This document shows, piece after piece, positions 24,343-49,958 of a stretch of DNA of 64,000 bases. Positions within the stretch are counted from its first letter, which is position 1; each line of letters starts with the position of its first letter. The notes beneath the pieces are model-generated. The model made no database searches and was not told the origin of the DNA. It saw only the letters and a list, made by a program, of their open reading frames with translations. The stretch is from Polyporus tsugae (taxonomy: Eukaryota; Basidiomycota; Agaricomycetes; Polyporales; Polyporaceae), in contig JAHRBS010000002.1 in the NCBI GenBank assembly GCA_024305745.1, positions 1,612,001 to 1,676,000 of the forward strand, in the 5' to 3' direction. The position numbers were made by a program, and so were the translations under genes.

Positions 24343-24344
24343 TT

Positions 24345-24355: not shown

Positions 24356-25090
24356 TCTCCACGAGCACCAGCGCACCTTTCCCCCAGGAGTTTACACATG
24401 TTTATCATTCCCCTTTCCCCTCGTACGGTACGCACTCAGATCCTCTGTGTTGGCCTAGGGTAGTGTGCGCTCTAGTCACACCATCGGACGTGGTCTTGAT
24501 TCAACTCGAGGCTTGCCACTTTCAGTGGTACAGTGCGCCGAAAGCTCCTAACCCGAGACCCCGGCACTGACAGAAGTGGTCCGCCTCACGGCATGGGAGG
24601 CTAGAGAAAGGCGGCGAAACAAAGCCAAGGCAGGACACCCCCGGGCTCGTGTCCCTTGTGGTTAAGACACAGCAATAGGCCAAGGAGGCTGAGCAGACAG
24701 TGTTGGATTGTGCATCCGCCGTCTCTGTTCCTTGAATAGGAAGCGAGTTCCAACAACCTGGCGAGCTGTAGTACATACGGACACGTCTTCCACGTCGTCA
24801 CGGTCGAAGACCAGCATTGGCATCGGTTAGACTCACAGTGGTACATCTGCGAACAACAACCCTGCCCCAACCGGTCGAACACCTTTGACTGGGACGAGGA
24901 AAGCTAGTCTCAATATCCCAGTTTTGTCACAACCGCCCCAGAGCAGAACGATCTCATCACCCAGTCACAACCCAGAGTCCCCACCAACCGCCTCCCACGA
25001 GCAGCCTCTGCTGCTGCAATCAGCTGACCAGGCACACGTCCCCCTAGCCATGCTCCTAGTCGCATCCCCACTCCCAGCGGATCACCCTCG

Positions 25091-29100: not shown

Positions 29101-29895
29101 CCACAGACAGATGGGCAATCAGAACGATGGAACCAGGAGATAGAGGCGTACCTTCGTATGTTCTGCTCACGGCACCGCAATGACTGGGTCAAGTGGCTGC
29201 CGATTGCAGAGTTCGCCTTTAACTTGCACCAGCACTCGTCAACGGGTTACTCGCCATTTTACCTCATGTACGGCTACGAACCCCGGTTCCACATTCCGAT
29301 GTTGCCTACGGCGGTGCCTGCAGCTGATGAATGCCGGGAGGAGTTGCGACAGGCACGAGAGGATGCAACCACGGCCTTGACTCTAGCAGCTGAGCGGATG
29401 AAGGAGTACTATGATCGGTATGTCCGTGATGCTCCAGAGTTCAAGGAAGGCCAGAAGGTGTGGCTCGACACGAGGAACTTCCGCGTTCCTGGAGTCTCTC
29501 AGAAACTGGTGGATCGATACGCTGGCCCGTATCTGGTTGTACGCAAGGTGGGCAATCTGGCTTACGAGCTCAGACTCCCCAAGGACCTTGTAATCCACCC
29601 CGTATTCCACGTTTCTCTCCTGCTTCCGCACAAGGAGAGTCAACTCCCCGGACGTCACCCGGCAGAGCCAGCGGCAATTGAGGTGGAGGGGGAGGAAGAG
29701 TACAAAGTGGAGGAAGTGTTGGAGTCGCGGTGGTATGGGCGGTGGAAGAAACTGCAGTACCTCGTACACTGGAAGGGTTGGGGCCCTGAACACGACAGCT
29801 GGGAGGATGCAGTGGACCTTACAAACGTGCCGCAACTCGTGCAGAAATTCCATTCAACGCACGCAGAGGCGCCTGGTCCTCTCAAGAAGACTTAG
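26116..29895 (+). pseudogene. pol: Pol of Ty3/sushi element (left copy), three nonsense codons
   Basis: The -1 frame runs from within gag to TAG at 29,893-29,895. Domains in order: aspartic protease (MVDSGATTKFLH at about 26,290); reverse transcriptase (FFFVKKKDGSLRPVQDYQRL, FTKLDIRWGYNNVQVK, active site YLDDIL near 27,515); RNase H (KVDASGFATGAVLSQEGED); integrase with HHCC zinc site (HPGQSKTLELVTRNYWWPGM, CDTCRRGKG) and core (CDFITGLPEVDGYNTL, IISDRGPQFSSKL, TAYHPQTDGQSERWNQEIEA); and a chromodomain (YKVEEVLESRWYGRWKKLQY, LVHWKGWGPEHDSWE). Stops are at 26,269-26,271, 27,394-27,396 and 28,432-28,434. All are TGA where an Arg CGA is likely. The chromodomain directs integration to modified histones in known chromoviruses. 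Confidence 0.92.
26122..26128 (+). promoter_or_regulatory. -1 ribosomal frameshift heptamer at gag-pol junction
   Basis: G_GGT_TTT in the gag frame fits the canonical X_XXY_YYZ slippery pattern. It lies directly before the gag stop. The pol frame is open on the -1 side from 26,116, so a single backward slip joins Gag to Pol. The mirror site in the right copy is 44,149-44,155. Confidence 0.65.
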
Positions 29896-29927
29896 TTGTG
29901 AAGGCATGACCCTTAGGAGGGGGGTAT

Positions 29928-30371
29928 TGTCATGAATGTTCCATTCGGCGCCTGCTACCAGCGCCTTAGTTTCCTTTTTCGGATGATCTACTTCTCACAT
30001 CGTACTTATTGTTCTCCGTTGCATTGTATCTCGTCCTTTGTTCCTCAGCACAATAGCTCCTTATTGTCTGTCGTTGCTATTGTTCCGTTTCCATTGTTCA
30101 CCTGTGTCCATAGTTACCTATTGTCCCCAGGTTCTCATTGTCCTCTATACGTATATAAGGACCTGTACTTTGCTGCCTGGAGACCTCAGTTTCGACCTCT
30201 TGTCTCCAGGTAAGCCTTGCTGTATTTCCCTCGTTAGTTACCTCACTCAATACATCTTGTCTCCAGCCCTGACCGTCGAGCCTTGCTCCGCTCTCGCTGC
30301 ACAAGTGCTTGTCGGCGCTCCTGCTCGTCTCGTACGTATCCCTGATCCTTGCTCGATGTCCAGTCGTAACA
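29928..30371 (+). repeat. 3' LTR, left Ty3 copy
   Basis: 444 bp, TGTCATGAATG to CAGTCGTAACA, preceded by the polypurine tract. It differs from the 5' LTR at several bases (for example GAATGTTCC versus GAACATTCC), so the insertion is not recent. Confidence 0.93.
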
Positions 30372-32316
30372 TTTGGTGCCTCTGCCTACATTGACTTCGA
30401 GTCGCTCTTTGCTCCCAGAGACTATGATTTAATGCGACCTAGGGGAGAGTATGTGGGTGTTCGGCCTCATCCAGACGATGCATGTACCGAGCTCGACAAG
30501 TCCCAGCCTATGCAGACAGCTGCAGAGTCTGACTCTGCCTCCGATGAGGAGGCCAAGCCCTCCGATGCAAACACTGACGATGTCGAGGACAACAATGAGG
30601 TCGACAAGTCCCGCCTAAGGGAACCTGTCAGAGTAGACTTCGACGAGTTCCTCTCCAACACTACAGACAACTCAGACGAGGATCCGGGATATACGAACAA
30701 GGACTTCCTCACCATAGAGGGGAAGGACTACTGGATTGGGTCCATCGTTACGGCCTGGTGCAGTGATCACCGTACAAAGAAGGTGGTGCTCCGTGTCTTG
30801 CGCACGGCAGGCGTGACACTCAAGGACCTCTGAGGTGGCGACCACTGGAATACCACCGAGTTGGATGAAGATGACCTCGTCAAGTCCGGAGATATTGCGG
30901 GGTCACTTGTACGGGTAGGAAGCGATGTTGGATTGGCCATTTTGGAACTCACCGGGTTTGAGCGTGGTCGGAGCAAAGGACTACCCGCGGTCCCTGTCAC
31001 TGATCTGGAGGATCCGTCCTCTCATGTGACTGCGGTAACACAGATCCTCGATATTGCAGTGCAGCATCCAGAGTCAGAAGATGCTGGCAAAAATTGGTAC
31101 TGGAGACAAGCGTACCTTTCTTTCGGCAATTCAACCCATGGCCAAGTGACAAAGAAGAACCTCGTGCTGAGACTTCCTGGCTTCCTGGTACATCCCCTCG
31201 CTCCAACACTCGCTCCACCTCCGCCTCCCTCCGATGAGTCTAATATAAGTGCTGTTAACAAGGCAGTAAGTCAGAATTGCTATACAACCTCAACGGTTAC
31301 TGACCCAGATCAATCTACACTGTAGCCGATGACCTGGTGGCTGAAGGAGACCGACTTAGAAGAGACAATGGCCTATGCATGGGAGTCCCTCCGTCCTGAT
31401 ACGAACAACATCCTCGGAAATATGGAACTCCTACCCAAGCTCACCAATGTGACACTTCCATACCGGACTGAAGATGGTAAGAGAACCATCCTCTAGAGCA
31501 AGACGGCTCACATCATCTCACGTATTTGATAGGGCGCGAATGTCTGAAGGTTTTGGATGTGCCTGCGCCACTCTCAACAGAGAAATGCTTGGGAGACCTC
31601 AAGATTGCATGCCTTATATGCCAGACATCAATGGTGTACCCTCTCAAGAGCATGCACAATCATGTTGGGTATCACATACTCCGCTCTCTTCGGGTCAAGG
31701 GGAGCGGAGAGCAGGCGGGTCTGAATAGCAATTTACTGTGACATTGTTTCTAAAGATGCACACACAGGTTGGCACAGAACCATGTGGTTTCTGTGGACTC
31801 GATGGCTGCCTCACGCAGTTGACTGTGAAAGGCTCCACTCGCACCATCGCTTCCAGCTGCCACTACCATTATGCGTCAATGGTTTACAGCCGCACTGCCA
31901 AATACTCCGAAACCTCCCCTTGCACCAATGTCCCCATCCATTGCCCATTCTGTCCACGGAGCGCAGCAGGTCTACCCCGGACAATATAGAAGTACAACGC
32001 CATGCAGCATCTCATCCTCGAGCACATGGAACCCGGTGAAGATGGCAACTTGGACCACTTACCTCCTATACCTCCTGAGCTCATGGTCACCATGCATATA
32101 TCTCGCAGGGAGGAGAAAAAGTTGAATATTGATGAAGAGATGACCGACCGTTGGAGAGGATTGTATGGCGTGCCTAGGAGCGATGCTGTCGAGGACGTGG
32201 AAAAGGAGTTGGCCGAGACAGAGAAAGGAAAGAAGAGGGATGCAGCGAAGAGACGGGAACGAGCCCCATCCGTGGCCTTAGCACAGCCTAGGAGCAAGTC
32301 TCAGCGAACTAGTTAG
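30372..32316 (+). pseudogene. 3' part of DNA-transposon protein, left arm copy
   Basis: This continues the protein broken by the Ty3 insertion. It opens with GASAYIDFESLFAPRDYDLM, then an acidic region, then DFLTIEGKDYWIGSIVTAWC. Introns lie at about 31,265-31,325, 31,475-31,531 and 31,723-31,767. The C-terminus has three zinc-finger-like pairs: CLICQTSMVYP...HNHVGYH, CGFCGLDGC, and CPFCPRS...HLILEH. It ends KSQRTS at 32,314-32,316. Two in-frame stops are seen: TGA 30,831-30,833 (likely Arg CGA) and TAG 31,987-31,989 (likely Trp TGG). The 5' half of this gene is absent in the left arm and present only on the right at 46,379-49,400. Confidence 0.78.
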
Positions 32317-32655
32317 AGGTAGTCTGCATTGTAATTGTGGCGAGTGGTTGAAGAGGATGATCGCGAGATGCACGTCTTGGACGAGCACTGCGCGCGCCAC
32401 ACAATCTTATCTTGAATCTGACTCGGCGCCTCAGGCTCGGCGGCGCAAAGTTCGCCTTTCCTCAGAATATTGATGTGCAGAACCTCGAAACAGTCTCAAA
32501 TGATCCATTCATGCTATAGAAATACATTGGTAGAGTTGTTTTTGCTTAGTAATTTATGTCTCGGACATGGGAGGCCAATCTTCATATGCCGCTCGAGCGC
32601 CTACTTGCTGCTGGTGCCCTACCGGTGTCCGGGGTCAAGCGCTTAACTTCTTGAT

Positions 32656-32691
32656 GCTCATGTCGAAAATCTCCCAAGCTGACCCCCCCTG
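32656..32691 (+). repeat. terminal inverted repeat ending the left arm
   Basis: Mirror of the 37,586-37,621 TIR, ending CCCCCCCTG at 32,691. It is followed by GGCAGCAT (32,692-32,699), an 8-bp sequence that recurs in reverse complement just outside the far end of the right element (49,777-49,784). Confidence 0.85.
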
Positions 32692-32692
32692 G

Positions 32693-33240
32693 GCAGCATC
32701 CTTCGCCATGTAAGTATCACGTCAGTCCACCTCGAGTTTGTATACCAAGGTCAAACACTACTAAACATTCAGTTCTGCAACATTTGCTAGGGTTCTTCCA
32801 ATATCTGCAGCCAAGATGCGTTTTCTCCACCCGCCGCAATTTGATGCTGACCGCGGTAAACGGCCTGAGAACAGGGCATGTCACGATTCTCGTAACACTC
32901 CCACTGTCGTAGCAGCTCCACGCGTGAGCGTTCCTGCGCAGCTAGCCGCACTCTCATAGTCATGGTGCTCGTGCGGATGCGCAGTTGGATAAAGTCACCA
33001 CAGCCTCATATAAGTATATTCAGTTGCTTGTGGAGCCGTGCTTTGATGGGAGTTCATTTAGACCTGCAGCCCCCCCCCCGGCAGGAACAGCACACTGCCT
33101 CACTTGCGGAATGGATCCACTGGCATGTCTGAGCCTTTCAGCAGCTTCCAACATCGGACCGTTACGAGTACTCAATGCTGCGAGGTACTTGGTCTGCTTA
33201 ATGGGATTCGCATCTCACCCAACCAGAACTCCTTGACATC
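32693..33240. other. spacer left end, no confident gene
   Basis: A splice-like frame (acceptor near 32,771, then ATFARVLPISAAKMRFLHPP to a TAG near 32,957) has no recognised product. A TATATAAG-like box occurs near 33,006 ahead of the DUF6593 gene. Confidence 0.35.
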
Positions 33241-33949
33241 ATGTCTCCCCCTGCGACTGTGACCTTGACTTTGACTCCGGACAACGTGTCCGATGCAACT
33301 ATTTGCAATACCTCTGGGAGAGCGTTATACACCGTCTCCACACATCTTGCCTGGTCTGCCAGTGCGATGCAAGTGAAGAACGGTGACGGAGAGGTAGTGG
33401 CGACGTTGGAGTGGCGAGACGTCCTCCCCACTCTTGGAAAGAACCCCCCTACTTCCCTCCGTAACTGGCTGCAGACGAGTCTCATGCCATACTCATCCAA
33501 AGGGTGCGTAGCATTCACTATTTCCCAGGCAGTGCATGCGGCTGAACTGTGACCTGCAGGAATGCGTCGTTCAAGGATGATTCTGGATGGAAGTACCAAT
33601 GGAAAGGGACGACATACAGCAAAACACTCGAGGTGCGGAACATGGAGCCTTCGTGTGCCACATAACATGCCGACTAATTGTGGAATGTGTTCTATAGCTC
33701 TTTGCAGAAGACGATGGTTACAAGGAGCCCATCGCGACCTTCAAGAAGTCGCGGCTCAACCTAGGAGAGGACTTGCCCGTGGAACCTGCAAGTCTGACTC
33801 TGACCGAATGTGCGGTGGAGATCCAGGACACCGTTGTCATCTCGTTCCTCTTCCTGGAGAGATTTTGTCGAGGGCAGGAGAATATGTCGCAGAACAATGC
33901 CAATGCGCCACCAGTTGGCACTCGATCACTTGGGGGGATCGGTCTCTAG
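33241..33949 (+). CDS. DUF6593 protein (intact copy)
   Basis: A three-exon gene of a basidiomycete family of unknown function. Exon 1 begins MSPPATVTLTLTPDNVSD and runs to SSKG (donor at about 33,503). Exon 2 reads NASFKDDSGWKYQWKGTTYS. Exon 3 starts LFAEDDGYKEPIATFKKSRL and continues through LTLTECAVEIQDTVVISFLF to a stop at 33,947-33,949. The beta-rich layout is as known for the domain: GR-LYTVST near the N-terminus, K-x-W-K-G in the middle and I-x-D-x-V-V-I-S-F at the end. It lies in the spacer between the inverted arms and has a decayed paralogue 0.8 kb downstream. Small, about 190 residues; no signal peptide. Confidence 0.85.
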
Positions 33950-34781
33950 TATGCACGCACAGTGAGATATATCAACGATAATATGTGTCTTCCGCCTGCG
34001 GTGTGTTTTCGAAGCATAGAAGGATTCAAATTGATGTAAAATAGGCGGCCACCAACCGACCGGGCGGCGGTTTTAGAGTGATGCGGAAACATTGATCACT
34101 GACACTGACGCTGCACGCATGGCGCTTGAATGCGGCAAGCCCAAAAGATCAGTGGAGACTCCCGTTCAAATCTGTGCAAGAGAAAATTTCAGACAAAGGG
34201 GACCATATAAGTCGCCGTACTGCGAGCAAACACAGGACGTCGTTCGAATATTGGCATCAATCGTCGTGCCAGCGTGCGTGTGGTTACCGCTGCCAGAAAC
34301 AATAGGCCCTTGAGCCCGTCTAGCGTTGTTACGACCGATGTACACAAAGGGTAGGCGCTGCCTCGAAGGAGACGGTTTTGTCTGAGGCGTCGACTTGGCA
34401 GATACGTTGACTGAAGGTTCAAACTTGTCTGATTTGTTTCCCTAGTTTCACCTCGTGCATGTCAGCAGAGTGACGTGCCGCCGCAGGAAGACAATATACA
34501 TACCAGCTGATACATGTTCTCCTCTGCGACAGCGCTCGGCATGCATAGTACAGATGCCCTTCCTGGGCCAAGAGGTAGCTTGACTACGGAGTTCATTGTC
34601 TGAACTGTGCGCGTTAGGTAGTGGCAGCATGAAAAACCGCTCACATATGGACATCCTGAACTCTTCGAAGCATCGGAGGCCTAGTGACATGGTTACACCG
34701 GTGTCGCATCCTGCAAGCTGCAGCCCAAATGCAGAGCGCAGAAGGTTGAGAAATACATAGGCATCTCAGAACGATGTTCGA
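33950..34781. other. intergenic between DUF6593 paralogues
   Basis: 832 bp, no supported gene on either strand. Confidence 0.5.
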
Positions 34782-35542
34782 ATGAGCGTATCTCATCCAC
34801 TACCGGCCACTAGTCCAGTCAACCCGATGTCAGCAATGAACGTTAACCTTGGTCACGGCCCCAAAGCAGCCTTCACATTGTCTCCGGACGACCCATCCAA
34901 CACAACCATATCCGACACAGGTCCAGATGGGACCACGCTCTACACCATCTCGACGCGGCGCCGCTGGAACAGGACAACAACGTACATCACAAATGTGCAT
35001 GGGGCAGTCCTGGCGTCGCTCGAGCGAGGGTTTGTCCTCAACGACAGGGTCATCCTCGGGCGGAGCCAGCCCATGTCCCTGTGGGAGTGGTTGTGCATGG
35101 GCCTCCCGGACAAGCACTCTATCATGTGAGTTCCAGGTATCGACAATTTGCTGTCGTCGGACTGATGTGGCGGCGAAGGGAAACTTCGTTTAGAGACGAG
35201 TCTGGGCGCAAGTACAAGTGAAAGGGGCACATTGTCAGCGGCTTGAGCGCGCTCGAGGTACATCCTATGCAGACGTGAAGCTGCTCACCAGTCCTCGTTC
35301 CCTGTCCCCGACTTTTGCCCTCGTTTTCACAACCTGACTTGCAACCTTCTTATACACAGCTCTTCACGAAAGACGACGAGTACACTCACCCCATCGCACA
35401 CTTCGACTGATGTCGAGAGATGTCGGGTTGGTAAGAAGAACCCGTGACGCTGACCCTCACAAGGCGTGCATTGGAGATCCGGGACCTCGTCGTGATCTCG
35501 TTCGTCTTTGTTGAGGATGGGCGTCGCAAGGAGGAGGCCTAG
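34782..35542 (+). pseudogene. DUF6593 paralogue with three nonsense codons
   Basis: The exon layout is the same as the neighbour. Exon 1 starts MSVSHPLPATSPVNP and contains GTTLYTISTRRRWN. Exon 2 has RDESGRKYK, where the invariant Trp of the K-W-K-G motif is TGA (35,219-35,221). Exon 3 starts LFTKDDEYTHPIAHFD, then TGA (35,408-35,410) and TAA (35,432-35,434), before the conserved EPVTLTLTRRALEIRDLVVI segment and stop at 35,540-35,542. The intron positions match the intact copy, showing tandem gene duplication. It could be a fresh pseudogene, since frame and splice sites survive. Confidence 0.8.
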
Positions 35543-36112
35543 ATGCGGCCCCGGGGCAATCCTCAGGGCGATCTTCCACTCCTGATGATCGCTTCTTATG
35601 GTCGTGCGGTAGTGGGTTCTGGGTAGTGAATGGTGGGCATGAGCACGCGGACCGCAGAGGAACAGATAGTAGACCAACCTCAGTGCACGAGGAGTAGGGG
35701 TGGCCCATTCGAGTGCTGTCTCACGTGAGTTTATGGTGCACCAGGAGTTGACGAGATGTGCATCTATGTGCAGTTACTGCTCTAAAATACAGAACTCCAG
35801 ATATTGACATTGTGTCGCGAAGCACCTCAATAGTACGCGGATGAGGTCAGTGTAGCATATGTCAGTCTCTGAACATCTTCGTCAAGGCCTAATGACATGT
35901 AGGGCGCGTGTGTTTGAGGAGCAAATACGAGGAATTTGAAACCAATAAACGAGTATCCTTATTGTTATCAGTGTTGAACATACTAGGAAAGCCTAAGCGT
36001 CGCGGAGCCCGAATCAGCGCTGGGTATATAAGAATGCGCGAGGTCACTCACCTTCTTTCCTCTCGATCATCTCGACCCCCTCCGTATCCTCCTGCTCTCG
36101 TGTTCAACGTTC
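35543..36112. promoter_or_regulatory. intergenic with TATA box
   Basis: No gene is seen up to about 36,000. A good TATATAAG (36,025-36,032) is followed by a CT-rich tract and an ATG at 36,113, which looks like a fungal core promoter. Confidence 0.4.
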
Positions 36113-36592
36113 AATGTCAATGCACACGGCACAGCACAACACTCATAACGCTTCGCAGATGGGTTGTCAGCCACTGTCGCCGATCGTGTTATGGATCGCT
36201 CTTGGTTGACAAAATACACGATCAGCGGTGGTTGACAGTCCTCGATCGTCGGATCCCAATGTCAGCCACCAAACTCGTGCCTACTCGAGCGACGCACCTC
36301 CGCTTCCCATCCTATTCACCCAGGTCCCCTTTGCTCACCTCGACGCACCCCAACCACTCAACGTCACCTGCCACAGTCGGCAAGCATCTGGGTGTCGGAC
36401 GATGAGGGAGGAACGAGGACTGCCCAAGGTACATCTGCCAGACTGCCTTTCGGGCCATTAGCAATGCTTGGTGGTTTGCATCCAGAAACACTCGTAGCGC
36501 GCACACACGGGCCGAGGGTATCTGCTGTCGTCGTCCGCATGACGCCAGTCCCAAATGAGCGACGATCCCCAAGCGCGTCCACGATACAGTAG
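36113..36592 (+). other. possible small spliced gene, unrecognised
   Basis: Downstream of the TATA box an ATG opens MSMHTAQHNTHNASQMGCQP and reads to a donor-like GTTGAC at about 36,207. A plausible acceptor (GTCAG at about 36,263) could join either ATKLVPTRATHLRFPSYSPR (ending 36,405) or an overlapping frame containing SASIWVSDDEGGTRTAQG (ending 36,592). No family is recognised and coding potential is unproven. The exon choice is a guess. Confidence 0.25.
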
Positions 36593-37585
36593 TCGGGGCC
36601 GGGGGAGTGTGTGGGCAGTGATCGCTCGTCTACGGTCCTGCATTCCTACCCCAACGGAGCCTCATCGTGCCCAAGAGGCCGGGGACTCGGAAGTTTGGAA
36701 CAATCCCATGGCCCCGCGTTGCAGGACTGAGCCAGGAAATGACGTCTACGACGCGGTCAATGCAATGGTGGACTGTGCACCTTGTGGTGGTCTCGGAACA
36801 GTCATCGTCCGCTACCAAAACAAAGGTTTGTCATGTGACCTAGAAACAAAAAGGGGATGAAAATGTTCCAAGCAGGCATAAATCTGCAAAGGTGTGTATA
36901 CAAGGGATGAGCTATTGAGGGAGTGTGTGGGCAGGATTGTCGGTAGACAGTCATCTGTTCCCTACCCCATGCCGTTCTCGTGACGCACCAGGCGACATCA
37001 AAACAGCGTTTGAATGCTTGGCCATGTAGCAATATTCATGTCCTTCCCAGTCCCCAATCGGCATCGACTGCGTCAAACCGAAAGCAAACATCACGTGTCG
37101 ATCGCAGCACCGACAAAAACGAAACTGAAGGAGATCAGATCATGCACCCATGGATGAACGAAAGTACGTGGTCGGACGTTGCAAGACATTTAAAAGGACG
37201 TAGACAGAGTGACCTGATACACAAGAACACATGAAGCCACGCGATGACAATTGGCCATGGAGGACATACGCACCGCAAATGGAACCCCAAGAGGTATGCA
37301 TACGCTGCTCTGGTGTTATAGTTGGAAGTTAAAGGGGTATATGTTGCAATTCTGCCGTCACGTCCGGAGCAGTGTCGTTTGTTTGGAGGCAGCTCTCGAG
37401 ATAAGCAAGTACTGTAGCATTAACACTGCATTATTACTATTAGGATATGTTGTCTGAGACAACTTGTGACGTCGGATGGTCACAGCGAGGCACAGTCTCA
37501 TGATCGTGACTGAAGTGCCCTCCGCACGCACTGGGCACTGGCACGATCACGAGTGGACGACGACATGGAGAGGACTTGCCTGGAC
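36593..37585. other. spacer right end, no gene seen
   Basis: About 1 kb without a supported gene. It ends with GCCTGGAC (37,578-37,585) directly next to the TIR. Confidence 0.45.
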
Positions 37586-37621
37586 CAGGGGGGGTCAGCT
37601 TGGGAGATTTTCGACATGAGC
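37586..37621 (-). repeat. 3' terminal inverted repeat of the DNA transposon
   Basis: CAGGGGGGGTCAGCTTGGGA, then GATTTTCGACATGAGC. It matches the other end with four substitutions. Outside lies GCCTGGAC, which is not repeated at the other end. Confidence 0.85.
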
Positions 37622-39905
37622 ATCAAGAAGTTAAGCGCTTGACCCCGGACACCGGTAGGGCACCAGCAGCAAGTAGGCGCTCGAGCGGCATATGAAGATT
37701 GGCCTCCCATGTCCGAGACATAAATTACTAAGCAAAAACAACTCTACCAATGTATTTCTATAGCATGAATGGATCATTTGAGACTGTTTCGAGGTTCTGC
37801 ACATCAATATTCTGAGGAAAGGCGAACTTTGCGCCGCCGAGCCTGAGGCGCCGAGTCAGATTCAAGATAAGATTGTGTGGCGCGCGCAGTGCTCGTCCAA
37901 GACGTGCATCTCGCGATCATCCTCTTCAACCACTCGCCACAATTACAATGCAGACTACCTCTAACTAGTTCGCTGAGACTTGCTCCTAGGCTGTGCTAAG
38001 GCCACGGATGGGGCTCGTTCCCGTCTCTTCGCTGCATCCCTCTTCTTTCCTTTCTCTGTCTCGGCCAACTCCTTTTCCACGTCCTCGACAGCATCGCTCC
38101 TAGGCACGCCATACAATCCTCTCCAACGGTCGGTCATCTCTTCATCAATATTCAACTTTTTCTCCTCCCTGCGAGATATATGCATGGTGACCATGAGCTC
38201 AGGAGGTATAGGAGGTAAGTGGTCCAAGTTGCCATCTTCACCGGGTTCCATGTGCTCGAGGATGAGATGCTGCATGGCGTTGTACTTCTATATTGTCCGG
38301 GGTAGACCTGCTGCGCTCCGTGGACAGAATGGGCAATGGATGGGGACATTGGTGCAAGGGGAGGTTTCGGAGTATTTGGCAGTGCGGCTGTAAACCATTG
38401 ACGCATAATGGTAGTGGCAGCTGGAAGCGATGGTGCGAGTGGAGCCTTTCACAGTCAACTGCGTGAGGCAGCCATCGAGTCCACAGAAACCACATGGTTC
38501 TGTGCCAACCTGTGTGTGCATCTTTAGAAACAATGTCACAGTAAATTGCTATTCAGACCCGCCTGCTCTCCGCTCCCCTTGACCCGAAGAGAGCGGAGTA
38601 TGTGATACCCAACATGATTGTGCATGCTCTTGAGAGGGTACACCATTGATGTCTGGCATATAAGGCATGCAATCTTGAGGTCTCCCAAGCATTTCTCTGT
38701 TGAGAGTGGCGCAGGCACATCCAAAACCTTCAGACATTCGCGCCCTATCAAATACGTGAGATGATGTGAGCCGTCTTGCTCTAGAGGATGGTTCTCTTAC
38801 CATCTTCAGTCCGGTATGGAAGTGTCACATTGGTGAGCTTGGGTAGGAGTTCCATATTTCCGAGGATGTTGTTCGTATCAGGACGGAGGGACTCCCATGC
38901 ATAGGCCATTGTCTCTTCTAAGTCGGTCTCCTTCAGCCACCAGGTCATCGGCTACAGTGTAGATTGATCTGGGTCAGTAACCGTTGAGGTTGTATAGCAA
39001 TTCTGACTTACTGCCTTGTTAACAGCACTTATATTAGACTCATCGGAGGGAGGCGGAGGTGGAGCGAGTGTTGGAGCGAGGGGATGTACCAGGAAGCCAG
39101 GAAGTCTCAGCACGAGGTTCTTCTTTGTCACTTGGCCATGGGTTGAATTGCCGAAAGAAAGGTACGCTTGTCTCCAGTACCAATTTTTGCCAGCATCTTC
39201 TGACTCTGGATGCTGCGCTGCAATATCGAGGATCTGTGTTACCGCAGTCACATGAGAGGACGGATCCTCCAGATCAGTGACAGGGACCGCGGGTAGTCCT
39301 TTGCTCCGACCACGCTCAAACCCGGTGAGTTCCAAAATGGCCAATCCAACATCGCTTCCTACCCGTACAAGTGACCCCGCAATATCTCCGGACTTGACGA
39401 GGTCATCTTCATCCAACTCGGTGGTATTCCAGTGGTCGCCACCTCAGAGGTCCTTGAGTGTCACGCCTGCCGTGCGCAAGACACGGAGCACCACCTTCTT
39501 TGTACGGTGATCACTGCACCAGGCCGTAACGATGGACCCAATCCAGTAGTCCTTCCCCTCTATGGTGAGGAAGTCCTTGTTCGTATATCCCGGATCCTCG
39601 TCTGAGTTGTCTGTAGTGTTGGAGAGGAACTCGTCGAAGTCTACTCTGACAGGTTCCCTTAGGCGGGACTTGTCGACCTCATTGTTGTCCTCGACATCGT
39701 CAGTGTTTGCATCGGAGGGCTTGGCCTCCTCATCGGAGGCAGAGTCAGACTCTGCAGCTGTCTGCATAGGCTGGGACTTGTCGAGCTCGGTACATGCATC
39801 GTCTGGATGAGGCCGAACACCCACATACTCTCCCCTAGGTCGCATTAAATCATAGTCTCTGGGAGCAAAGAGCGACTCGAAGTCAATGTAGGCAGAGGCA
39901 CCAAA

Positions 39906-40349
39906 TGTTACGACTGGACATCGAGCAAGGATCAGGGATACGTACGAGACGAGCAGGAGCGCCGACAAGCACTTGTGCAGCGAGAGCGGAGCAAGGCTCG
40001 ACGGTCAGGGCTGGAGACAAGATGTATTGAGTGAGGTAACTAACGAGGGAAATACAGCAAGGCTTACCTGGAGACAAGAGGTCGAAACTGAGGTCTCCAG
40101 GCAGCAAAGTACAGGTCCTTATATACGTATAGAGGACAATGAGAACCTGGGGACAATAGGTAACTATGGACACAGGTGAACAATGGAAACGGAACAATAG
40201 CAACGACAGACAATAAGGAGCTATTGTGCTGAGGAACAAAGGACGAGATACAATGCAACGGAGAACAATAAGTACGATGTGAGAAGTAGATCATCCGAAA
40301 AAGGAAACTAAGGCGCTGGTAGCAGGCGCCGAATGGAACGTTCATGACA
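39906..40349 (-). repeat. 3' LTR, right Ty3 copy
   Basis: 444 bp mirror of 29,928-30,371. On the minus strand it is followed by TTTGG, the right-hand target duplication, and then by the resumed transposon reading frame. Confidence 0.93.
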
Positions 40350-40381
40350 ATACCCCCCTCCTAAGGGTCATGCCTTCACAA

Positions 40382-43300
40382 CTAAGTCTTCTTGAGAGGA
40401 CCAGGCGCCTCTGCGTGCGTTGAATGGAATTTCTGCACGAGTTGCGGCACGTTTGTAAGGTCCACTGCATCCTCCCAGCTGTCGTGTTCAGGGCCCCAAC
40501 CCTTCCAGTGTACGAGGTACTGCAGTTTCTTCCACCGCCCATACCACCGCGACTCCAACACTTCCTCCACTTTGTACTCTTCCTCCCCCTCCACCTCAAT
40601 TGCCGCTGGCTCTGCCGGGTGACGTCCGGGGAGTTGACTCTCCTTGTGCGGAAGCAGGAGAGAAACGTGGAATACGGGGTGGATTACAAGGTCCTTGGGG
40701 AGTCTGAGCTCGTAAGCCAGATTGCCCACCTTGCGTACAACCAGATACGGGCCAGCGTATCGATCCACCAGTTTCTGAGAGACTCCAGGAACGCGGAAGT
40801 TCCTCGTGTCGAGCCACACCTTCTGGCCTTCCTTGAACTCTGGAGCATCACGGATATACCGATCATAGTACTCCTTCATCCGCTCAGCTGCTAGAGTCAA
40901 GGCCGTGGTTGCATCCTCTCGTGCCTGTCGCAACTCCTCCCGGCATTCATCAGCTGCAGGCACCGCCGTAGGCAACATCGGAATGTGGAACCGGGGTTCG
41001 TAGCCGTACATGAGGTAAAATGGCGAGTAACCCGTTGACGAGTGCTGGTGCAAGTTAAAGGCGAACTCTGCAATCGGCAGCCACTTGACCCAGTCATTGC
41101 GGTGCCGTGAGCAGAACATACGAAGGTACGCCTCTATCTCCTGGTTCCATCGTTCTGATTGCCCATCTGTCTGTGGGTGGTAGGCTGTGGACATTGCGCT
41201 TTCTATGCCGAGTCCCTTGAGTACGGCGCGGAAGAGCTTGCTTGAGAACTGGGGCCCACGATCAGAGATGATCTTCCGTGGCAGCCCGTGAAGACAAAAA
41301 TGTTCTCGGATGAAGTTGTCAGCAGCTCCTTCTGCGTCGATCTCTTCGGTGCAAGGAATAAGATGTATCATCTTTCCATGCCGATCAGCAATGAGCTGAA
41401 GCGTGTTGTATCCATCCACCTCTGGGAGTCCAGTGATAAAGTCGCACGTCACAATCTGGCCCGGGCCATCAGGGATTTCATTTGGTTGAAGAGGACCATG
41501 CGGTTTGGCATGCGAACCCTTGCCGCGGCGACAGGTGTCGCAGGTCTCAACGTAATCCTTAATGAACTTTGCCATGCCCGGCCACCAGTAGTTTCGCGTG
41601 ACCAACTCCAACGTCTTCGACTGCCCAGGGTGTCCAGCGGGCGGGAGGTCGTGGTGGATGCATACAATCTCAGCGCGCAGCACGTCGTCCTTGGGGACAT
41701 AGACTTTGCCTCGGTACAGTAGTAGGCCTTGCTCACTGTTCCAGTCCACCAAGTCATTCTGAAGACGCGCTGGTCCAAGTTTGTCCAGTTTACTGAGTGC
41801 CTCCACGACCTCCTGCTCGCGCTCTCCGCACTCGCGGATGCGTCAAAGCAGTGCCTTCTCTGGAACCACCGATAGGTGCCCTCTCTTAGCTGCCAGTACC
41901 TGGAAATGTTCTGGCTGCAGCAAGACTCGACTGAGATTGTCATCTGCATCCTTGTGCTGGTGGTCGGGCCGTCTTGACAGTGCATCGGCCCTACCATTAG
42001 ACGTCCCAGGCTTGTGCGAGATGACAAAGTCGAATCGTGACAGATAGAGAGCCCATCGTGCCTTCCTGCGTGTGAGGTTCTGTGCTGTGCGCCAATACTC
42101 AAGGTTCTTGTGGTCCGACTGGATCTCGAACACACTGGGGAGACCCTCGAGATAGTGACGCCAGGCCTGCAGGGCATGAATGATGGCGAGCATCTCCTTG
42201 TCGTAGATCTCGTAGTTGCGTTCAGCGTTGTTCATCGACTCGGAGTGAAAAGCGATGGGGTGCCATTTGCCGTCTTCCCCCTCCTGAGACAGAACCGCGC
42301 CCGTAGCGAAGCCAGATGCGTCGACTTTGATGCGGGTGTTGCGGTCTGGATCATAGATCGTCAGGACAGGGCTTTTGGTGAAGCAACGCTTGAGCTCGTC
42401 AAAGGCAGACTGCTCTTCGTCTCCCCATTGCCATGGCGCATTGCCCGTGAGGCGATCCAAGGGTTTGCAGATGGCACTAAAGTCCTTTATGAACCGCCGA
42501 TAGAAGTTTGCGAAACCGCGGAACTTCCGTACGTCTGTGGCGTTCTGAGGGACAGGCCAATCCGCGATACCCTTCACCTTCACCGGATCCATCTCTACGC
42601 AGTTCTCCGAGACGAGTACACCAAGGTATTCCACCTTAGGCTGTTCGAACTCGCACTTCTCTGGCTTGCAGAACAGATTGTTCTCCTTAAGACGTTTCAG
42701 GACCTCGCGCACCAATGTGCGGTGTTCCTCAAGACTGTCGGTGAATATGAGGATGTCGTCGAGGTAGATAGTGACTTTGCCGAGTATGATGAGGTCCTTG
42801 AAGATGTCGTTCATGAGCGCAGAGAATGTGCTGGGCAAATTGGCTAGCCCAAAGAACATAACGTTCGGTTCAAACAGCCCTCAATTGGTCACGAAGGCAG
42901 CCTTCCATTCATCGCCGGCCTTAACCTGCACATTGTTGTACCCCCAGCGAATATCGAGCTTTGTGAAGTACTTGGCCTTCTTGAGTCGATCCATCAGATC
43001 CGATACCAACGGTAGTGGGTAACAGTTCTTAATGGTGATCTCGTTGAGTCGCTGATAGTCCTGGACTGGACGTAGGCTACCATCCTTCTTTTTGACAAAG
43101 AAGAATGGCAACAACATCGGCGACTTCGACTCTTGAATATAGCCTTTGGCCAAGTTCTCAGCGAGAAACTTGTCAAGCTCTCCTTGTTCGCTGGGTGATA
43201 GGGGGTACACATGGGAATGGAACATCTTTGCATCGGGCACGAGCTCTATCGCATGGTCATAGGGTCTATGTTCTGGCAAATGTTCGGACACCTCTTTCGA

Positions 43301-44161
43301 GAACACATGCAAGTATTTGTGATAGTGCTCGGGTACGATTTCTTCAACGGGGCAGACTACCTTCTTCTGGTACTCTTGCTCAGCGAGTTGTTGCAAATAT
43401 GTGTATGTCGCTGAAGCAAACAGTTGCGGAGCACCATAAAGGCGTTGTCCATCCTCCCATGCATCGAGAAGAGACGTCTCAGTTCCATCCCACCGCGGCA
43501 GGAATCCTGGCGGCCAGGGCCTATCCTCCTCCTTCTCCTCAGTCATCACGGCCGCACACGCCCTTCCAACCTTCCTAACCTTCTTTGCCCGTCGAGGACC
43601 GCGGCGCGCCATAAGCTGTACCTCCGTATCACGCGCTTTGGTCTCGACAGGTTCAGAGGTTCTCTGGTTAGCCGGGCATGTCTCTGGACATCTCAACAGG
43701 CGCAGCGAGCCACGTTCCCAGTCTACTTCAGGGTTGTGCTCGTGTAGCCAGTCCAGGCCGATGATGACATCCTCTTCTCCTATATCCATCACTACAAAGA
43801 CCACCTTCTCCCTGTGGTCTCCGATTGCCATATCCAACACGGCAACCTCTGTGATTGTACCATCACGGTTTTCTGAACTGTCGATGTTGTACAGAGGAAT
43901 TGGCCTTGCCAACTTCCTCGTCGTAACCCTATTCTGTTCTACGAATCGTCTATGTAGGAACTTAGTAGTAGCACCGCTATCTACCATAGCTACAATGTCC
44001 TTATGTCACTGCTTGCCGATTAACCGTACCGGTATATGAAAGTGTTGACCATCATGATTTACTTCATATACAAACGACGAACCCAGTACAGAAAATCGAC
44101 TATTACTACAAGAACCAGCACGCGCAGCGTCCAATGTGGTTCTAATCAAAAACCCTCTTTC
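40382..44161 (-). pseudogene. pol: Pol of Ty3/sushi element (right copy), three nonsense codons
   Basis: Protease, reverse transcriptase (YLDDIL), RNase H, integrase and chromodomain in the same order as the left copy. Stops are at 44,006-44,008, 42,881-42,883 and 41,843-41,845, exact mirrors of the left ones. It differs from the left copy by a few residues, for example YDRYIRD here versus YDRYVRD there in the integrase tail. Because the nonsense codons are shared, they were present before the arms were duplicated. Confidence 0.92.
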
Positions 44162-45186
44162 TTATCGACCACCATAAGGGTGGCGATCTTCTCCTCCATT
44201 GCCTTGAGCTGGGCCTTGAGTGTCGTGAGCTCGTCAGTGCTGGATGAGGAAGAAGAGGCAGCCCGTTGGCCCTCGACTTTGGGCTTTGGGCAGTGCCACG
44301 CGGGATGTCCTTTCTCACCGCAGTTCCAGCACTCTCCGTCGAACTTCTTCTTGCCCGAACCAGAGGCGGCTGCCTTTTCGCCCTTCTTCTTCCATCCAAA
44401 TTGCTTCGGCCGTTCCTCCTCGCGCACGGCAAGTTGCTGGTCCATCTGCAGCGCGACTTTCTGGATCTTGGCGAGGTCCGAGATGTCGTGCGCTGTGGTC
44501 GCAAAGGCGTCCTTGATCTTGTAAGGGAGTGCCGTGCGGTACCGTTCGCGCTTGTCTGCGTCATTGAACCTGGTGCAAGCAGCGATGGCGTTGAACTGAC
44601 TGGTATAGTCCTTGACGGTGCCAAGCCGATGCGAAGCCTTGCAGAGTTTGGTGAGTTCTGCGATGGCTGCTTCCTCGTCGTTCGCAGTGCAGAAGTGCGC
44701 CTTGAATGACCCTTCAAAGGCCGCAAAGTCCGACCATGCAACATTGCCGCTGGCCACCGTGATGATGTATGGACCGGCCCACTCAGCAGTGCCACTGGTC
44801 AACTTGTTGAGGATTGTGATCCAGCGGATCTCGTGCGCGACACCTTGCGCCTCGAGGAGATCGTAGTAGATGCGGGCATTAGCTACAAAGCGAAGCCCTT
44901 CCTGCGCGAGTTTTCCATCGTACTCGCGAGGGGCGATTTGAGAGAGGAGTTTGGAAACATCGAAGGGGGCGGGCGTGGCCATAATGGAAGCGGGTGATGA
45001 GGGTGGAGAGGGACTTGGCACGGGTGAGGGACCTGGCACAGGTGAGGGGCTACTCGGAGTGTTGAGAATAACAGTTTGTGGTGGAGGGGTCCCTGCCAGA
45101 GAGGGTGTGGGTGGGGGGTTGGATGTTCGTCGTGTAATACGGTCACTGGCTAGCGTAAGTGCTTGGCCAAGTGGAATGGATCCCAA
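44146..45186 (-). CDS. gag: Gag of Ty3/sushi element (right copy)
   Basis: 346 residues, same as the left copy over the whole translated length: Pro/Ser-rich start, helical Gag region, CCHC knuckle CWNCGEKGHPAWHC. The frame is intact and ends just after the slippery heptamer at 44,149-44,155. Confidence 0.9.
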   Translation of the reverse strand: MGSIPLGQALTLASDRITRRTSNPPPTPSLAGTPPPQTVILNTPSSPSPVPGPSPVPSPSPPSSPASIMATPAPFDVSKLLSQIAPREYDGKLAQEGLRFVANARIYYDLLEAQGVAHEIRWITILNKLTSGTAEWAGPYIITVASGNVAWSDFAAFEGSFKAHFCTANDEEAAIAELTKLCKASHRLGTVKDYTSQFNAIAACTRFNDADKRERYRTALPYKIKDAFATTAHDISDLAKIQKVALQMDQQLAVREEERPKQFGWKKKGEKAAASGSGKKKFDGECWNCGEKGHPAWHCPKPKVEGQRAASSSSSSTDELTTLKAQLKAMEEKIATLMVVDKKEGF

Positions 45187-45934
45187 CGAGGGTGATCCGC
45201 TGGGAGTGGGGATGCGACTAGGAGCATGGCTAGGGGGACGTGTGCCTGGTCAGCTGATTGCAGCAGCAGAGGCTGCTCGTGGGAGGCGGTTGGTGGGGAC
45301 TCTGGGTTGTGACTGGGTGATGAGATCGTTCTGCTCTGGGGCGGTTGTGACAAAACTGGGATATTGAGACTAGCTTTCCTCGTCCCAGTCAAAGGTGTTC
45401 GACCGGTTGGGGCAGGGTTGTTGTTCGCAGATGTACCACTGTGAGTCTAACCGATGCCAATGCTGGTCTTCGACCGTGACGACGTGGAAGACGTGCCCGT
45501 ATGTACTACAGCTCGCCAGGTTGTTGGAACTCGCTTCCTATTCAAGGAACAGAGACGGCGGATGCACAATCCAACACTGTCTGCTCAGCCTCCTTGGCCT
45601 ATTGCTGTGTCTTAACCACAAGGGACACGAGCCCGGGGGTGTCCTGCCTTGGCTTTGTTTCGCCGCCTTTCTCTAGCCTCCCATGCCGTGAGGCGGACCA
45701 CTTCTGTCAGTGCCGGGGTCTCGGGTTAGGAGCTTTCGGCGCACTGTACCACTGAAAGTGGCAAGCCTCGAGTTGAATCAAGACCACGTCCGATGGTGTG
45801 ACTAGAGCGCACACTACCCTAGGCCAACACAGAGGATCTGAGTGCGTACCGTACGAGGGGAAAGGGGAATGATAAACATGTGTAAACTCCTGGGGGAAAG
45901 GTGCGCTGGTGCTCGTGGAGAAGTTTCGACCTAA

Positions 45935-46378
45935 TGTTACGACTGGACGTCGAGTAAGGATCAGGGATACGTACAAGACGAGCAGGAGCGCCGACAAGCA
46001 CTTGTGCAGCAAGAGCGGAGCAAGGCTCGATGGTCAGGGCTGGAGACAAGATGTATTGAGTGAGGTAACTAACGAGGGAAATACAGCAAGGCTTACCTGG
46101 AGACAAGAGGTCGAAACTGAGGTCTCCAGGCAGCAAAGTACAGGTCCTTATATACGTATAGAGGACAATGAGAACCTGGGGACAATAGGTAACTATGGAC
46201 ATGGGTGAACAATGGAAATGGAACAATAGCGACGACAGACAATAAGGAGCTATTGTGCTGAGGAACAAAGGACGAGATACAATGCAACGGAGAACAATAA
46301 GTACAATGTGAGAAGTAGATCGTCCAAAAAAGGAAACTAAGGCGCTGGTAGCAGGCGCCGAATGGAATGTTCATGACA
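45935..46378 (-). repeat. 5' LTR, right Ty3 copy
   Basis: 444 bp. It differs from the left 5' LTR at a few bases near its start (CTACCAGC versus CTACTAGC; TTGGACGATC versus TCGGATGATC). Confidence 0.93.
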
Positions 46379-49300
46379 CCGAACACGTCCACCAAGAACT
46401 TGTTTGCATCGCTTTGTGCACGCGCCCACTCTGCATCAATGTCAACGCGACCAACATGAACATCTCCGGTCCAGGACTTCGGGTTGATATGATCGACACC
46501 CATCGCATCTTTGAGGCTGAGACGTCTGTGTCCTCGATCAAGGTCTGGATTGCGCTCAAAGATGGTGCTGATAAGGGCACTGACTGCGAGCTTCTCCGAT
46601 AGTTGCAGGATGTTGAAGTTTCGGCTATGGTCCTGCGTGCGGACATCCCCGAAAAGGAGCTCGAGATGGTCAGTGCCCTCGAGGATGAGATAGAAGGTAA
46701 GGGTGGGGTCGATCGCCTTGAGACGGAGGATAGTGATGACAAGGTTCTTCACAATGCTTTGTGAGTCGTAGTACAGAGCCCCGGTGAAGAATGTGTTCCC
46801 GTGTTTAGACTAGAGAGCAGCAAGAAGGTGAGCAAAGGTGATGAGAGATCGGATCTGTGTTGAGAGGTCCCAGATTGGTGTGATGAAAGGACGAACAAAG
46901 TAACCCATAACCTCTCCGATGAAGAGGACCATTCGACGGCGGTGAGCAGCATTTGGAGTCTCGAATAGTGTGGGCTGCTCAATGACTTGTCGTAGGTCAA
47001 GCAACTTCTGCACTAGACGCACTGCCTTCGGAATGTTCTGCTTATCAGCAGGATTCAGCAGCTCGCGTGCCTGGGAGTCGGACATATGAGGGAGGACCTT
47101 GAGAGCATCGAGGACATCGCTTGAGTAAACCACCGTATGATCGGGGAGTGAGATACCGCTAGGGTTTCGGAGGAGTGTTGTGAAACCTGGGATAGTTTTC
47201 GTAAGTGTCTGACAAAATTGTGGATATTAGATGCACTAACGCTTGATGACATGCTTCAGATCACAAGTTGCAATGAGTGTGTTTGCTCCAGCCTCGCAAT
47301 TGAGACCAGGCAAGTGGTGCATCAAGACTCCGAGAGCAGAGTCAGGGGTGACGACCTCTGTAGTGCAGAGCTTGTGCTTTGTGGCTCTGTATGTGCTGTC
47401 TCCATCGGTGGCGAGTGCCCAGACATTACCATGAGTCTTTCCTCCCGACTCGTGCTTCTCCCACACATTCACTACCATGTCCAGCCACCGAGCAAGCTGT
47501 GTACCCTTCTCCAACTTGCAAGAAGGTGAGACGACGATTGGGATTGCGGAGTAGTGATCTGCTCACGCATAAGGGGCAATTGCAACCACTGTCCCATCCT
47601 TTCCGTAGTGACACTTGAGCTCAGCATCCGGGTTGTGGAGTGCGTCTGCGACCTGCTTGATGGACTCGACATCCTTCACCTCCATCCCGATCCCTACGCT
47701 GTGCTCCCGACAGACTCCGATGATCGAGCGGCTCTCGCAAAGATATCGGCATCGCTCCTCCATCGCCACTCCGTCGACTTGGAGGACCATCCCAGGAAGC
47801 TGTCCGGTTGCCATTCGAGGAGGGACGGGCTTCACCGTTGGGTCAAACATTGCGCTGATGTTCAAGCTAACTTTGTGCTCGGTTGGGACACCAATAGAAG
47901 GCAGGATGCGCGGGATCTTTCGTGCCTTCGAGAGTGTTGATTGGGCAGCCATGCCATAGGCCTTGCATAAAGCATGTAGCAACCTCGGGCCGCCAATGCT
48001 TTTCGAAAGGAAGGCGAGATCCATCTCGCGCTCTGTGTAGTGACCACGGGGAGCGTACACGCCAGCTGCAGCTTTCTCAAGCTGCCGCGCAATGCCTGGT
48101 GCGCCCAAACCATGTGTTAGAGAGATGTTGAGGATGCGCGAGAGGCGCACGTATTCGTGGGAGGCAATGAGCTTGGTTAGGCATTGGTGATCGGTGAGAC
48201 GGCACCGCAATGATGAGGTACGTCGCTCGAAGTTGAGTTTCTATTTGTTTTGGTACCAGTGAGACAATTGCCTTGTTTTGAATCTCTGGCATAACTCACC
48301 TTCATCTGCAGGACTCGATATTTTGACATCAACTTCATGCATCGCCGGAGCAACTGCTGCTGTGATAGGAGTGGCCAAGTGGTCTCTTCGGGCACATTGG
48401 TCGCACGGGATAAGAATGCCTTGAATTTCATGGACCGAGGCACCTTGAGACAAGCTTGGCAGACTGCCTCTGGTGGAGCAACGCGCTGAGGACACTCCGT
48501 GGAACGGAGGCGAAGCCATTGGCGGTTCTCAATCGCAATCGGCTCCCAGGGGTAAGTATGGTGCTCATGGGCATGATACGGGTAGGTGTCCCATACCGAT
48601 CCAGCAGTCCATTCCACACGAACACCGATGCATTTGTTGGATTCACCGTCACCATCACTATCACTTTCACCAAGAGCTAATGCGGCAGCCGAGGTAGACA
48701 GATCAGATGTGAAAAGCTCGGAGGAAGGGCGGGTTGCCAGTGGCGTCATCATGGGGGTAGTAGTAGGGTATATACGACTTGTGGACTCGGATGGGCCAAA
48801 GAAATCATGAAGGGAATGCGATAGTGCCGGAGTGACTAGACTCAGGCTCAACGGCCCTGCAGATGCAGGCCTGGAGGGAGGGGTGGAATGTGAAGTGGTA
48901 GGTGTCTCCATGCCATGCTCGCCGGAAGCATGCCGCTATATTGATGGACCAGGACTTGAGTGGGAAGAGCCGGCACGAGCAGGGGTAGAAATTGATGATG
49001 CAGTGGGGGAAAGGTGTGTTTGGATCCGCCCCGCACCTGTTTCACCGAGAATCTGAGCGATAACTGACTTCTCCGCCGATGAGAGCACTGTTCCAGCAGG
49101 GCCGCCACCCAATTGACGAAGGCTTCGGTGTTCTTGTTCTTGGCGGCATTTCTGTGAGGAGCGGTGTGCAAATAGCCTAGCGGGGTTCCCATGTTCTGTA
49201 AGAACAATTTGAAGACCACATAGATCATAATGGACTGCGTGCAATCCTGTTAGCGGGTTCTCGAGCACTGTCCAGAGCATCTGCTGGGAAGGAAGGGTGA

Positions 49301-49740
49301 TCTCGACAGATTTCCAGGTTGTCGTTATGGGCTCTGCGGTGGGGTTGCTGAGATCCATGGAGGATAGGGTCAAGATGACACTGATTATTTGCCGACTCAC
49401 TGCCTGCGTACAATGCGCCTCAAGGCCATACTCGCACTAATACTTGAGGGGCAGTCGCATAGAGCGCTTAACAGGAGTACCAATTGCGATAATCTCCAGA
49501 TCTCGACACCGGCTAGATCAGGTCAAAGTGGCCGGAACGACGGCCGTCAATAGCAATGTAACTGTGCTTTTACTCTGAATCAAACATGTGGGATATATTC
49601 TGCAAGTGTTCCTCTTGCTGTACACAAACTTACAGGCAAATCTGGTGAAAATTGGAGGGACGGGGACAAAAGGAATGGAAATGGCACAGAGAAGCACCAT
49701 CAGGGACCCCGGTCACCGGTTTCGCCGCCAGCAGCAGGGG

Positions 49741-49776
49741 GCTGATGTCGGAAATCTCCCGAGCGGACCCCCCCTG
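49741..49776 (-). repeat. 5' terminal inverted repeat of the DNA transposon
   Basis: On the minus strand it reads CAGGGGGGGTCCGCTCGGGA, then GATTTCCGACATCAGC. It is followed on the plus strand by ATGCTGCC (49,777-49,784), the reverse complement of GGCAGCAT at 32,692-32,699. Confidence 0.86.
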
Positions 49777-49869
49777 ATGCTGCCATCGGTGCCACACTGC
49801 CATCACCGGCTGTCCGTGTTCGTCATCCATCATCTCTACTATATTTGTTACTGCTTACATACTGATAAG

Positions 49870-49958
49870 CCTTCGATAGCTCAGTTGGAAGAGCGTGAGA
49901 CTGTAATTGGATATCACGGTGCATCTCAAGGTCACTGGTTCGATCCCGGTTCGAAGGA
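49870..49958 (+). tRNA. tRNA-Tyr (GUA) with 16-nt intron
   Basis: Acceptor arms CCTTCGA (49,870-49,876) and TCGAAGG (49,951-49,957) pair fully, with discriminator A. The D-arm reads AGCTCAGTTGGAAGAGC. The anticodon stem TGAGA/TCTCA encloses CTGTAA, with GTA at 49,903-49,905. A 16-nt intron (49,907-49,922) sits after position 37, the usual place. The T-arm GGTTCGATCC is intact. A short T-run follows (ATTATTTTT), a Pol III terminator. Confidence 0.93.

What the first reader, a model, noticed from the sequence alone, without database searches (positions are those of the whole stretch)
32692..49784. Swapped 8-bp target duplications reveal an inversion of the DUF6593 spacer
The right DNA transposon should have matching 8-bp flanks. 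Its inner flank is GCCTGGAC (37,578-37,585), but its outer flank is ATGCTGCC (49,777-49,784). The exact reverse complement of the latter, GGCAGCAT, flanks the left arm at 32,692-32,699. Inverting the DNA between the arms restores a perfect direct target duplication around the right element. So a crossover between the inverted arms appears to have flipped the spacer after insertion. Rejoining the flanks also opens a frame MAASFA across the old site, a weak extra hint.
Basis: partly seen in the sequence, partly recalled or inferred. Interest (0 to 1): 0.86.

Follow-up and report, generated by a model that had tools for sequence, protein, structure and literature searches.

The report
Gene segment flipped between mirrored transposons
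In a mushroom-type fungus, a 4.9-kb stretch of genes lies between two mirrored copies of a mobile element, and the short repeats left at the insertion site indicate that the stretch has been turned around since the element landed, which is a known kind of rearrangement seen here with clear marks.

Summary
The complete right element (37,586-49,776) has unlike 8-bp flanks, GCCTGGAC inside and ATGCTGCC outside; the exact reverse complement of the outer one, GGCAGCAT, abuts the left arm. Two other elements in this genome have perfect 8-bp target duplications, and a chance match at a fixed place has p of about 2.5e-5. Turning the spacer round restores a perfect duplication, so sequence 49,785 onward and sequence 32,700 onward very probably once met at one target.

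The cause is less settled. Crossing-over between the inverted arms (99.90% identical over 8,793 bp) fits best. A single hybrid-element transposition gives the same order of parts, and the published test between the two cannot be applied. Assembly error is not excluded: no reads or sister genomes were available. The MAASFA hint has no support. A homologue of the transposase folds like the Drosophila P-element transposase; Galileo, of the P superfamily, made Drosophila inversions with this signature. New member of a known kind.

The parts
37586..49776 (-). Right element E: 12,191-bp DNA transposon, coding strand minus, ends CAGGGGGGGTC...GACCCCCCCTG (TIR 32/36), carrying a nested LTR retroelement
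37578..37585 (.). Inner flank of E, GCCTGGAC (does not match the outer flank)
49777..49784 (.). Outer flank of E, ATGCTGCC
32692..32699 (.). GGCAGCAT, exact reverse complement of the outer flank, at the inner end of the left arm
30372..32691 (+). Left copy E' remnant: inner terminus and 3' part of the transposase gene of E (match at 30,501-31,472); the other terminus is missing, and the outer half was found elsewhere only in E itself and as short partial matches on C16
23899..30371 (+). Ty3-type LTR retroelement of the left arm (chromodomain integrase, in-frame stops); 5' flank GACGC does not match 3' flank TTTGG, so the left junction looks recombinant
39906..46378 (-). Same LTR retroelement in the right arm, inserted in the transposase gene of E; flanks TTCGG/TTTGG = 5-bp target duplication with one transition
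32700..37577 (.). Spacer, 4,878 bp, single copy apart from one 45-bp match, inferred to be inverted
33241..33949 (+). DUF6593 gene 1 (three exons by eye, 195 aa), homologues in Ganoderma
34827..35542 (+). DUF6593 gene 2, first exon matches the family; later exons read by eye with two in-frame TGA, probably a pseudogene
46379..48935 (-). 5' part of the transposase gene of E, in-frame stops at 47563-47565 and 46810-46812; the 3' part follows beyond the LTR element (match at 39,776-38,805)
49870..49958 (+). tRNA gene, 85 bp outside the outer flank: anchor of the right host side

Best explanation
A P-like DNA transposon (E) inserted at an 8-bp site that then read S1-GGCAGCAT-S2 (S1 = reverse complement of 49,785 onward; S2 = 32,700 onward), duplicating it. 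A Ty3-type retroelement later landed in its transposase gene. A second, inverted copy (E') came to sit 4.9 kb away at GTCCAGGC. Homologous recombination between the inverted copies then flipped the 4,878-bp spacer, exchanging the inner flanks, and an LTR-LTR exchange removed the outer half of E' with its outer target duplication. Shown: the flanks, the 8-bp rule, the arm identity, the nested LTR element, the unlike flanks of the left LTR element. Inferred: the order of events and that recombination rather than transposition made the inversion.
For: Exact 8-bp match after un-inverting, p about 2.5e-5 per pair; perfect 8-bp duplications around two other elements of the genome; inverted arms of 8,793 bp with 9 differences, all transitions, 6 in CpG, an ample substrate; modelled product equals the observed order apart from the lost left end; left LTR flank GACGC against TTTGG, while 2 of 3 other full copies checked have matching 5-bp flanks; 3 of the 9 arm differences lie in the first 57 bp of the left LTR, as an LTR-LTR exchange there would give. 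Inverted repeats of about 4 kb flip a region repeatedly over evolution in Saccharomyces (PMC9731477, abstract and sections 9 and 10 read).
Against: Only one of the two expected swapped pairs can be seen; the outer target duplication of E' is gone. Chimerism cannot be tested, because E' lacks half the element and no other long copies were found. E' shares the LTR insertion and broken transposase gene of E, so its birth as a second insertion needs transposase from elsewhere or later gene conversion. The Saccharomyces region showed no flip in about 53,800 mitoses and 950 meioses (PMC9731477, section 9), so flipping is not automatic. One of the three LTR copies checked also has unlike flanks, so such flanks are not unique to this locus.
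Confidence: 0.58

Rival explanations
1. Hybrid-element (aberrant) transposition: one end of E from one chromatid and the other end from its sister or homologue inserted together at GTCCAGGC, 4.9 kb away. One event made the second inverted copy, inverted the spacer and left the same exchanged flanks. The left end was later trimmed by LTR recombination.
For: The symbolic product is identical to that of recombination and, but for the lost left end, to the window. Delprat and others state that this model leaves two identical copies while recombination leaves chimeric ones (PMC2775673, section 10 part 1 read); here the arms are 99.90% identical including the nested LTR element, and searches of the genome found only these two long copies, one short relative and a fragment. 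Needs one event, not two.
Against: The transposase gene of E is cut by the LTR element and carries stops, so active transposase had to come from elsewhere; the relatives on C9, C13 and C5 are 29-34% identical to the homologue P0004 and 4 of their 5 matches read through stops, though introns were not modelled. Arm identity can equally come from gene conversion. Alternative transposition is rarer than standard transposition in maize (PMC8225341, section 15 read).
Confidence: 0.22
2. Assembly error: E and E' are two ordinary insertions and the assembler placed the spacer the wrong way round between 8.8-kb inverted repeats.
For: Nothing but the arms anchors the spacer in sequence; the arms differ at only 9 sites in 8,793 bp; no reads were available.
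Against: 43.2 Mb in 18 contigs points to long reads, probably able to cross 8.8 kb (inference); no N in the window. In yeast, independent long-read assemblies agreed on the orientation and on the sequences of comparable repeats (PMC9731477, sections 9 and 10).
Confidence: 0.14
3. Reversed-ends transposition using the inner end of E' and the outer end of E into a target between S1 and S2, inverting S1 rather than the spacer.
For: Would also give GGCAGCAT at those two ends and leave GCCTGGAC as the old flank of E (worked out on paper, not computed).
Against: Predicts a donor scar with GCCTGGAC further right; none on the + strand from 49,785 to the end of the window or in the next 9,990 bases, though the scar could lie farther out. 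Needs active transposase.
Confidence: 0.05
4. Chance match of an unrelated 8-mer.
For: GGCAGCAT or its complement occurs four times in 64 kb.
Against: The place is fixed by the element end; p about 2.5e-5.
Confidence: 0.01

Closest known systems
Galileo inversions of Drosophila buzzatii (2j, 2q7, 2z3), PMC2775673
   Same: Two copies of a cut-and-paste transposon in opposite orientation at the ends of an inverted segment, target duplications exchanged as reverse complements (described for 2z3); Galileo is in the P superfamily, and a homologue of the transposase of E has the P-element fold.
   Different: For 2z3 both swapped pairs, chimeric copies and uninverted chromosomes were seen; here one pair, no chimerism test, no other chromosome. 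The segment here is 4.9 kb, in a fungus, target duplication 8 not 7 bp.
Saccharomyces 24-kb flip/flop region, PMC9731477
   Same: A fungal segment between near-identical inverted repeats that recombine and homogenise.
   Different: The repeats there are host genes; orientation polymorphism was seen in many strains. None could be examined here.
Maize Ac/fAc alternative-transposition inversions, PMC8225341
   Same: Inversion ends lie exactly at transposon termini with matching 8-bp repeats across the two junctions.
   Different: There the 8 bp mark a newly cut target from a known parent allele; here the order is equally explained by recombination.

Membership tests
Inversion by ectopic recombination between transposon copies | Two homologous copies in opposite orientation at the ends of the segment | tested here: met
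   Arms 23,899-32,691 and 37,586-46,378, 8,793 bp, 9 differences
Inversion by ectopic recombination between transposon copies | Exchanged target duplications, pair of the complete element | tested here: met
   GGCAGCAT at 32,692 and ATGCTGCC at 49,777
Inversion by ectopic recombination between transposon copies | Exchanged target duplications, pair of the second copy | tested here: inconclusive
   Outer end of E' is lost; the terminus pattern has 3 places in the window, two of E and one of E'
Inversion by ectopic recombination between transposon copies | Copies are chimeric | tested here: inconclusive
   E' holds only one half, and no other long copies were found in the genome to compare
Inversion by ectopic recombination between transposon copies | Uninverted chromosomes carry the single empty target | not testable with these tools
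   G000 has no relatives in the held set
Hybrid-element insertion | The two copies are identical, not chimeric | tested here: inconclusive
   99.90% identical over the shared part, but gene conversion would do the same
P superfamily of DNA transposons | P-element-like transposase fold | tested here: met
P superfamily of DNA transposons | 7- or 8-bp target duplication | tested here: met
   8 bp around C16 and C9 elements; none found for C13; the 8 bp of P itself is recalled, the 7 bp of Galileo is from PMC2775673
P superfamily of DNA transposons | N-terminal THAP DNA-binding domain | tested here: inconclusive
   No Pfam THAP match in the N-terminal ORF at 48,177-48,935 or in 11 homologues, most of which start later than P0003
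hAT or Kyakuja-Dileera-Zisupton transposons | Transposase matches the Pfam family models | tested here: inconclusive
Ty3-type LTR retroelement with chromodomain | RT-RNase H-integrase order with chromodomain, 5-bp target duplication | tested here: met
   Pfam matches in that order on separate pieces of the left copy; matching 5-bp flanks in 2 of 3 other copies

The most novel reading that the evidence does not exclude
A single aberrant transposition of a fungal P-like element, using ends from two chromatids and transposase supplied from elsewhere, made the second inverted copy and the inversion in one step. The pair of arms now forms a palindrome-like structure that can keep flipping a DUF6593 gene pair, so a defective element has become a standing inversion switch.
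Probability: 0.12. Interest if true: 0.55.

Novelty: new member of a known kind. Interest (0 to 1): 0.36.

Why it matters
Exchanged target duplications are strong evidence of an inversion that can be read from a single genome; the documented cases that I saw are in Drosophila. Here they appear in one fungal assembly, beside an element whose transposase family folds like that of the P element. The case gives a ready PCR test for whether mirrored transposons keep flipping host genes in mushrooms, and a reminder that the orientation of short segments between long inverted repeats in assemblies can be checked against target duplications.

Tried and rejected
MAASFA as a gene across the empty site: the joined frame is 19 residues, and the only residues that the join adds are M-A. 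Of the six frames across the join two are longer (96 and 88 residues) and three more are 36-39. The control join (37,585 to 49,785), forward frames only, is open for 56, 50 and 107 residues (my count). For the spliced 68-residue product no candidate homologue was found. Rejected as evidence.

GTCCAGGC at 17,780 as the missing outer duplication of E': not followed by an element end. Rejected.

Segmental duplication as the origin of E': the likeness of the two inner ends stops within one base of the element terminus, so a break at random is unlikely.

Transposase naming by sequence: the pieces gave only one weak Pfam hit of the expected kind (TNP-like RNase H, E 0.24, below its cut-off) and a stray one; the joined query gave none; 11 homologues gave four scattered weak families; a profile search of solved sequences gave one hit at E 0.36. 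The fold search was clearer; other families absent there are not excluded.

C13 relative: no 8-bp duplication with matching termini found. The third LTR pair checked (L019/L033) has unlike flanks. ARAGORN found no tRNA, Rfam found one.

Alleles of the left LTR edge were compared with the 26 LTR copies outside the window for which loci were returned; an earlier alignment mixed orientations and was dropped. Two of the three odd alleles also occur in the 3' LTR of the same arm, so the donor of the exchange is not identified.

Literature: nine searches. Their listings showed me no report of this locus; only named Ganoderma (2 papers, neither on this). Searches listed no paper that I recognised as being on P-superfamily elements in basidiomycetes; that is no proof of absence. 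Four papers were opened, none read whole: PMC2775673 (passages and section 10 part 1), PMC8225341 (passages and section 15), PMC12730594 (passages), PMC9731477 (outline with abstract, sections 9 and 10). Viral, metagenome and prokaryote collections were not scanned.
Full report
What is there. The window is C15:1,612,001-1,676,000 of a 43.24-Mb genome in 18 contigs. DUF6593 gene 1 of the spacer has its nearest homologues in Ganoderma (75% in G. adspersum, 73% in G. sinense, 86% over 61% of the query in G. leucocontextum), so the organism is probably a Ganoderma-like polypore. Two inverted arms, 23,899-32,691 and 37,586-46,378, enclose a 4.9-kb spacer that is single copy apart from one 45-bp match. 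The arms differ at 9 of 8,793 sites, all transitions, 6 in CpG; the T or A is in the left arm at 7 of 9.

Anatomy of the arms. Each arm is the inner end of a DNA transposon plus a Ty3-type LTR retroelement with a chromodomain integrase and in-frame stops (the Pfam search was run on the left copy). In the right arm the retroelement sits in the transposase gene of the transposon with flanks TTCGG and TTTGG, a 5-bp duplication with one C-to-T difference. Its two LTRs differ at 13 of 444 sites in the left arm, and at 14 of 450 in either arm, about thirty times the divergence between the arms. So the retroelement is older than the present likeness of the arms, whether that came from copying or from gene conversion. 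In the left arm its outer flank is GACGC, which does not match TTTGG, and three of the nine arm differences fall in the first 57 bp. That fits an exchange with another LTR copy, which cut off the outer half of the left transposon. Of the outer half the genome search found E itself and two short partial matches on C16 only.

The flanks. The transposon has GCCTGGAC inside and ATGCTGCC outside; GGCAGCAT abuts the left arm. The size of the target duplication was tested in this genome: AGTCCGCC on both sides of the C16 short relative and TCTGCTAC on both sides of the C9 relative; nothing was found for C13. A chance match at the fixed place has p about 2.5e-5. Inverting the spacer gives ATGCTGCC-element-ATGCTGCC. 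I therefore accept that S1 (beyond 49,785) and S2 (from 32,700) were once neighbours.

How it came about. A symbolic model shows that recombination between two insertions and a one-step hybrid-element insertion give the same order, and both equal the window apart from the lost left end. The published test that separates them, chimeric against identical copies (PMC2775673, section 10 part 1), cannot be applied: the left copy is half missing, and near-identity also follows from gene conversion. I favour recombination because 8.8-kb inverted repeats are a ready substrate and because no other copy of this element's own transposase gene was found; the distant relatives on C9, C13 and C5 were not tested for intactness. 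The birth of the second copy needs transposase or conversion in any model. A fungal precedent for repeated flipping between homogenised repeats is the Saccharomyces flip/flop region, where nonetheless no flip was seen in about 53,800 mitoses and 950 meioses (PMC9731477, sections 9 and 10). Assembly error keeps a real share because no reads were at hand.

What it does. Nothing shows a function. Gene 1 of the spacer looks intact, gene 2 looks broken by two TGA codons read by eye; a flip would move both genes with their own upstream regions. The MAASFA frame does not support a gene across the site.

Verdict. By the flank evidence a real, well-marked small inversion, unless the assembly is wrong; the kind is known, from Drosophila Galileo above all. 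Interest is moderate. The useful extras are the P-like fold of the fungal transposase family and the recombinant LTR end.

Noticed in passing
37586-49776; relatives on C9, C13, C5: A fungal transposase family without a fitting Pfam model, one homologue of which folds like the Drosophila P-element transposase; 8-bp target duplications in two elements; named homologues in Ganoderma sinense, Antrodiella, Mycena and Favolaschia.
   Followed up: partly
22413-23540: 1.13-kb non-autonomous element with termini CATCACC...GGTGATG, three copies at about 99% identity elsewhere in the genome and four checked at about 70%; the termini fit those given for PlavakaB in PMC12730594 (passages).
   Followed up: partly
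23629-23898: Single-copy open frame (MGRTRRSAAQ...) cut off at the left LTR; the rest of the gene was presumably lost with the left half of E'.
   Followed up: partly
23899-30371 and 39906-46378: The LTR has 41 listed matches in the genome, 40 of them at 93% identity or more, four of these in the window; only 40 of 225 candidates were scored. It offers many partners for LTR-LTR exchange.
   Followed up: partly
23899-46378: Arm differences are all transitions, 6 of 9 at CpG, and 7 of 9 have the T or A in the left arm, as methylation-driven decay would give.
   Followed up: no
C17 LTR pair L019/L033: Another full-length copy of the LTR element with unlike 5-bp flanks, a possible second recombinant.
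   Followed up: no
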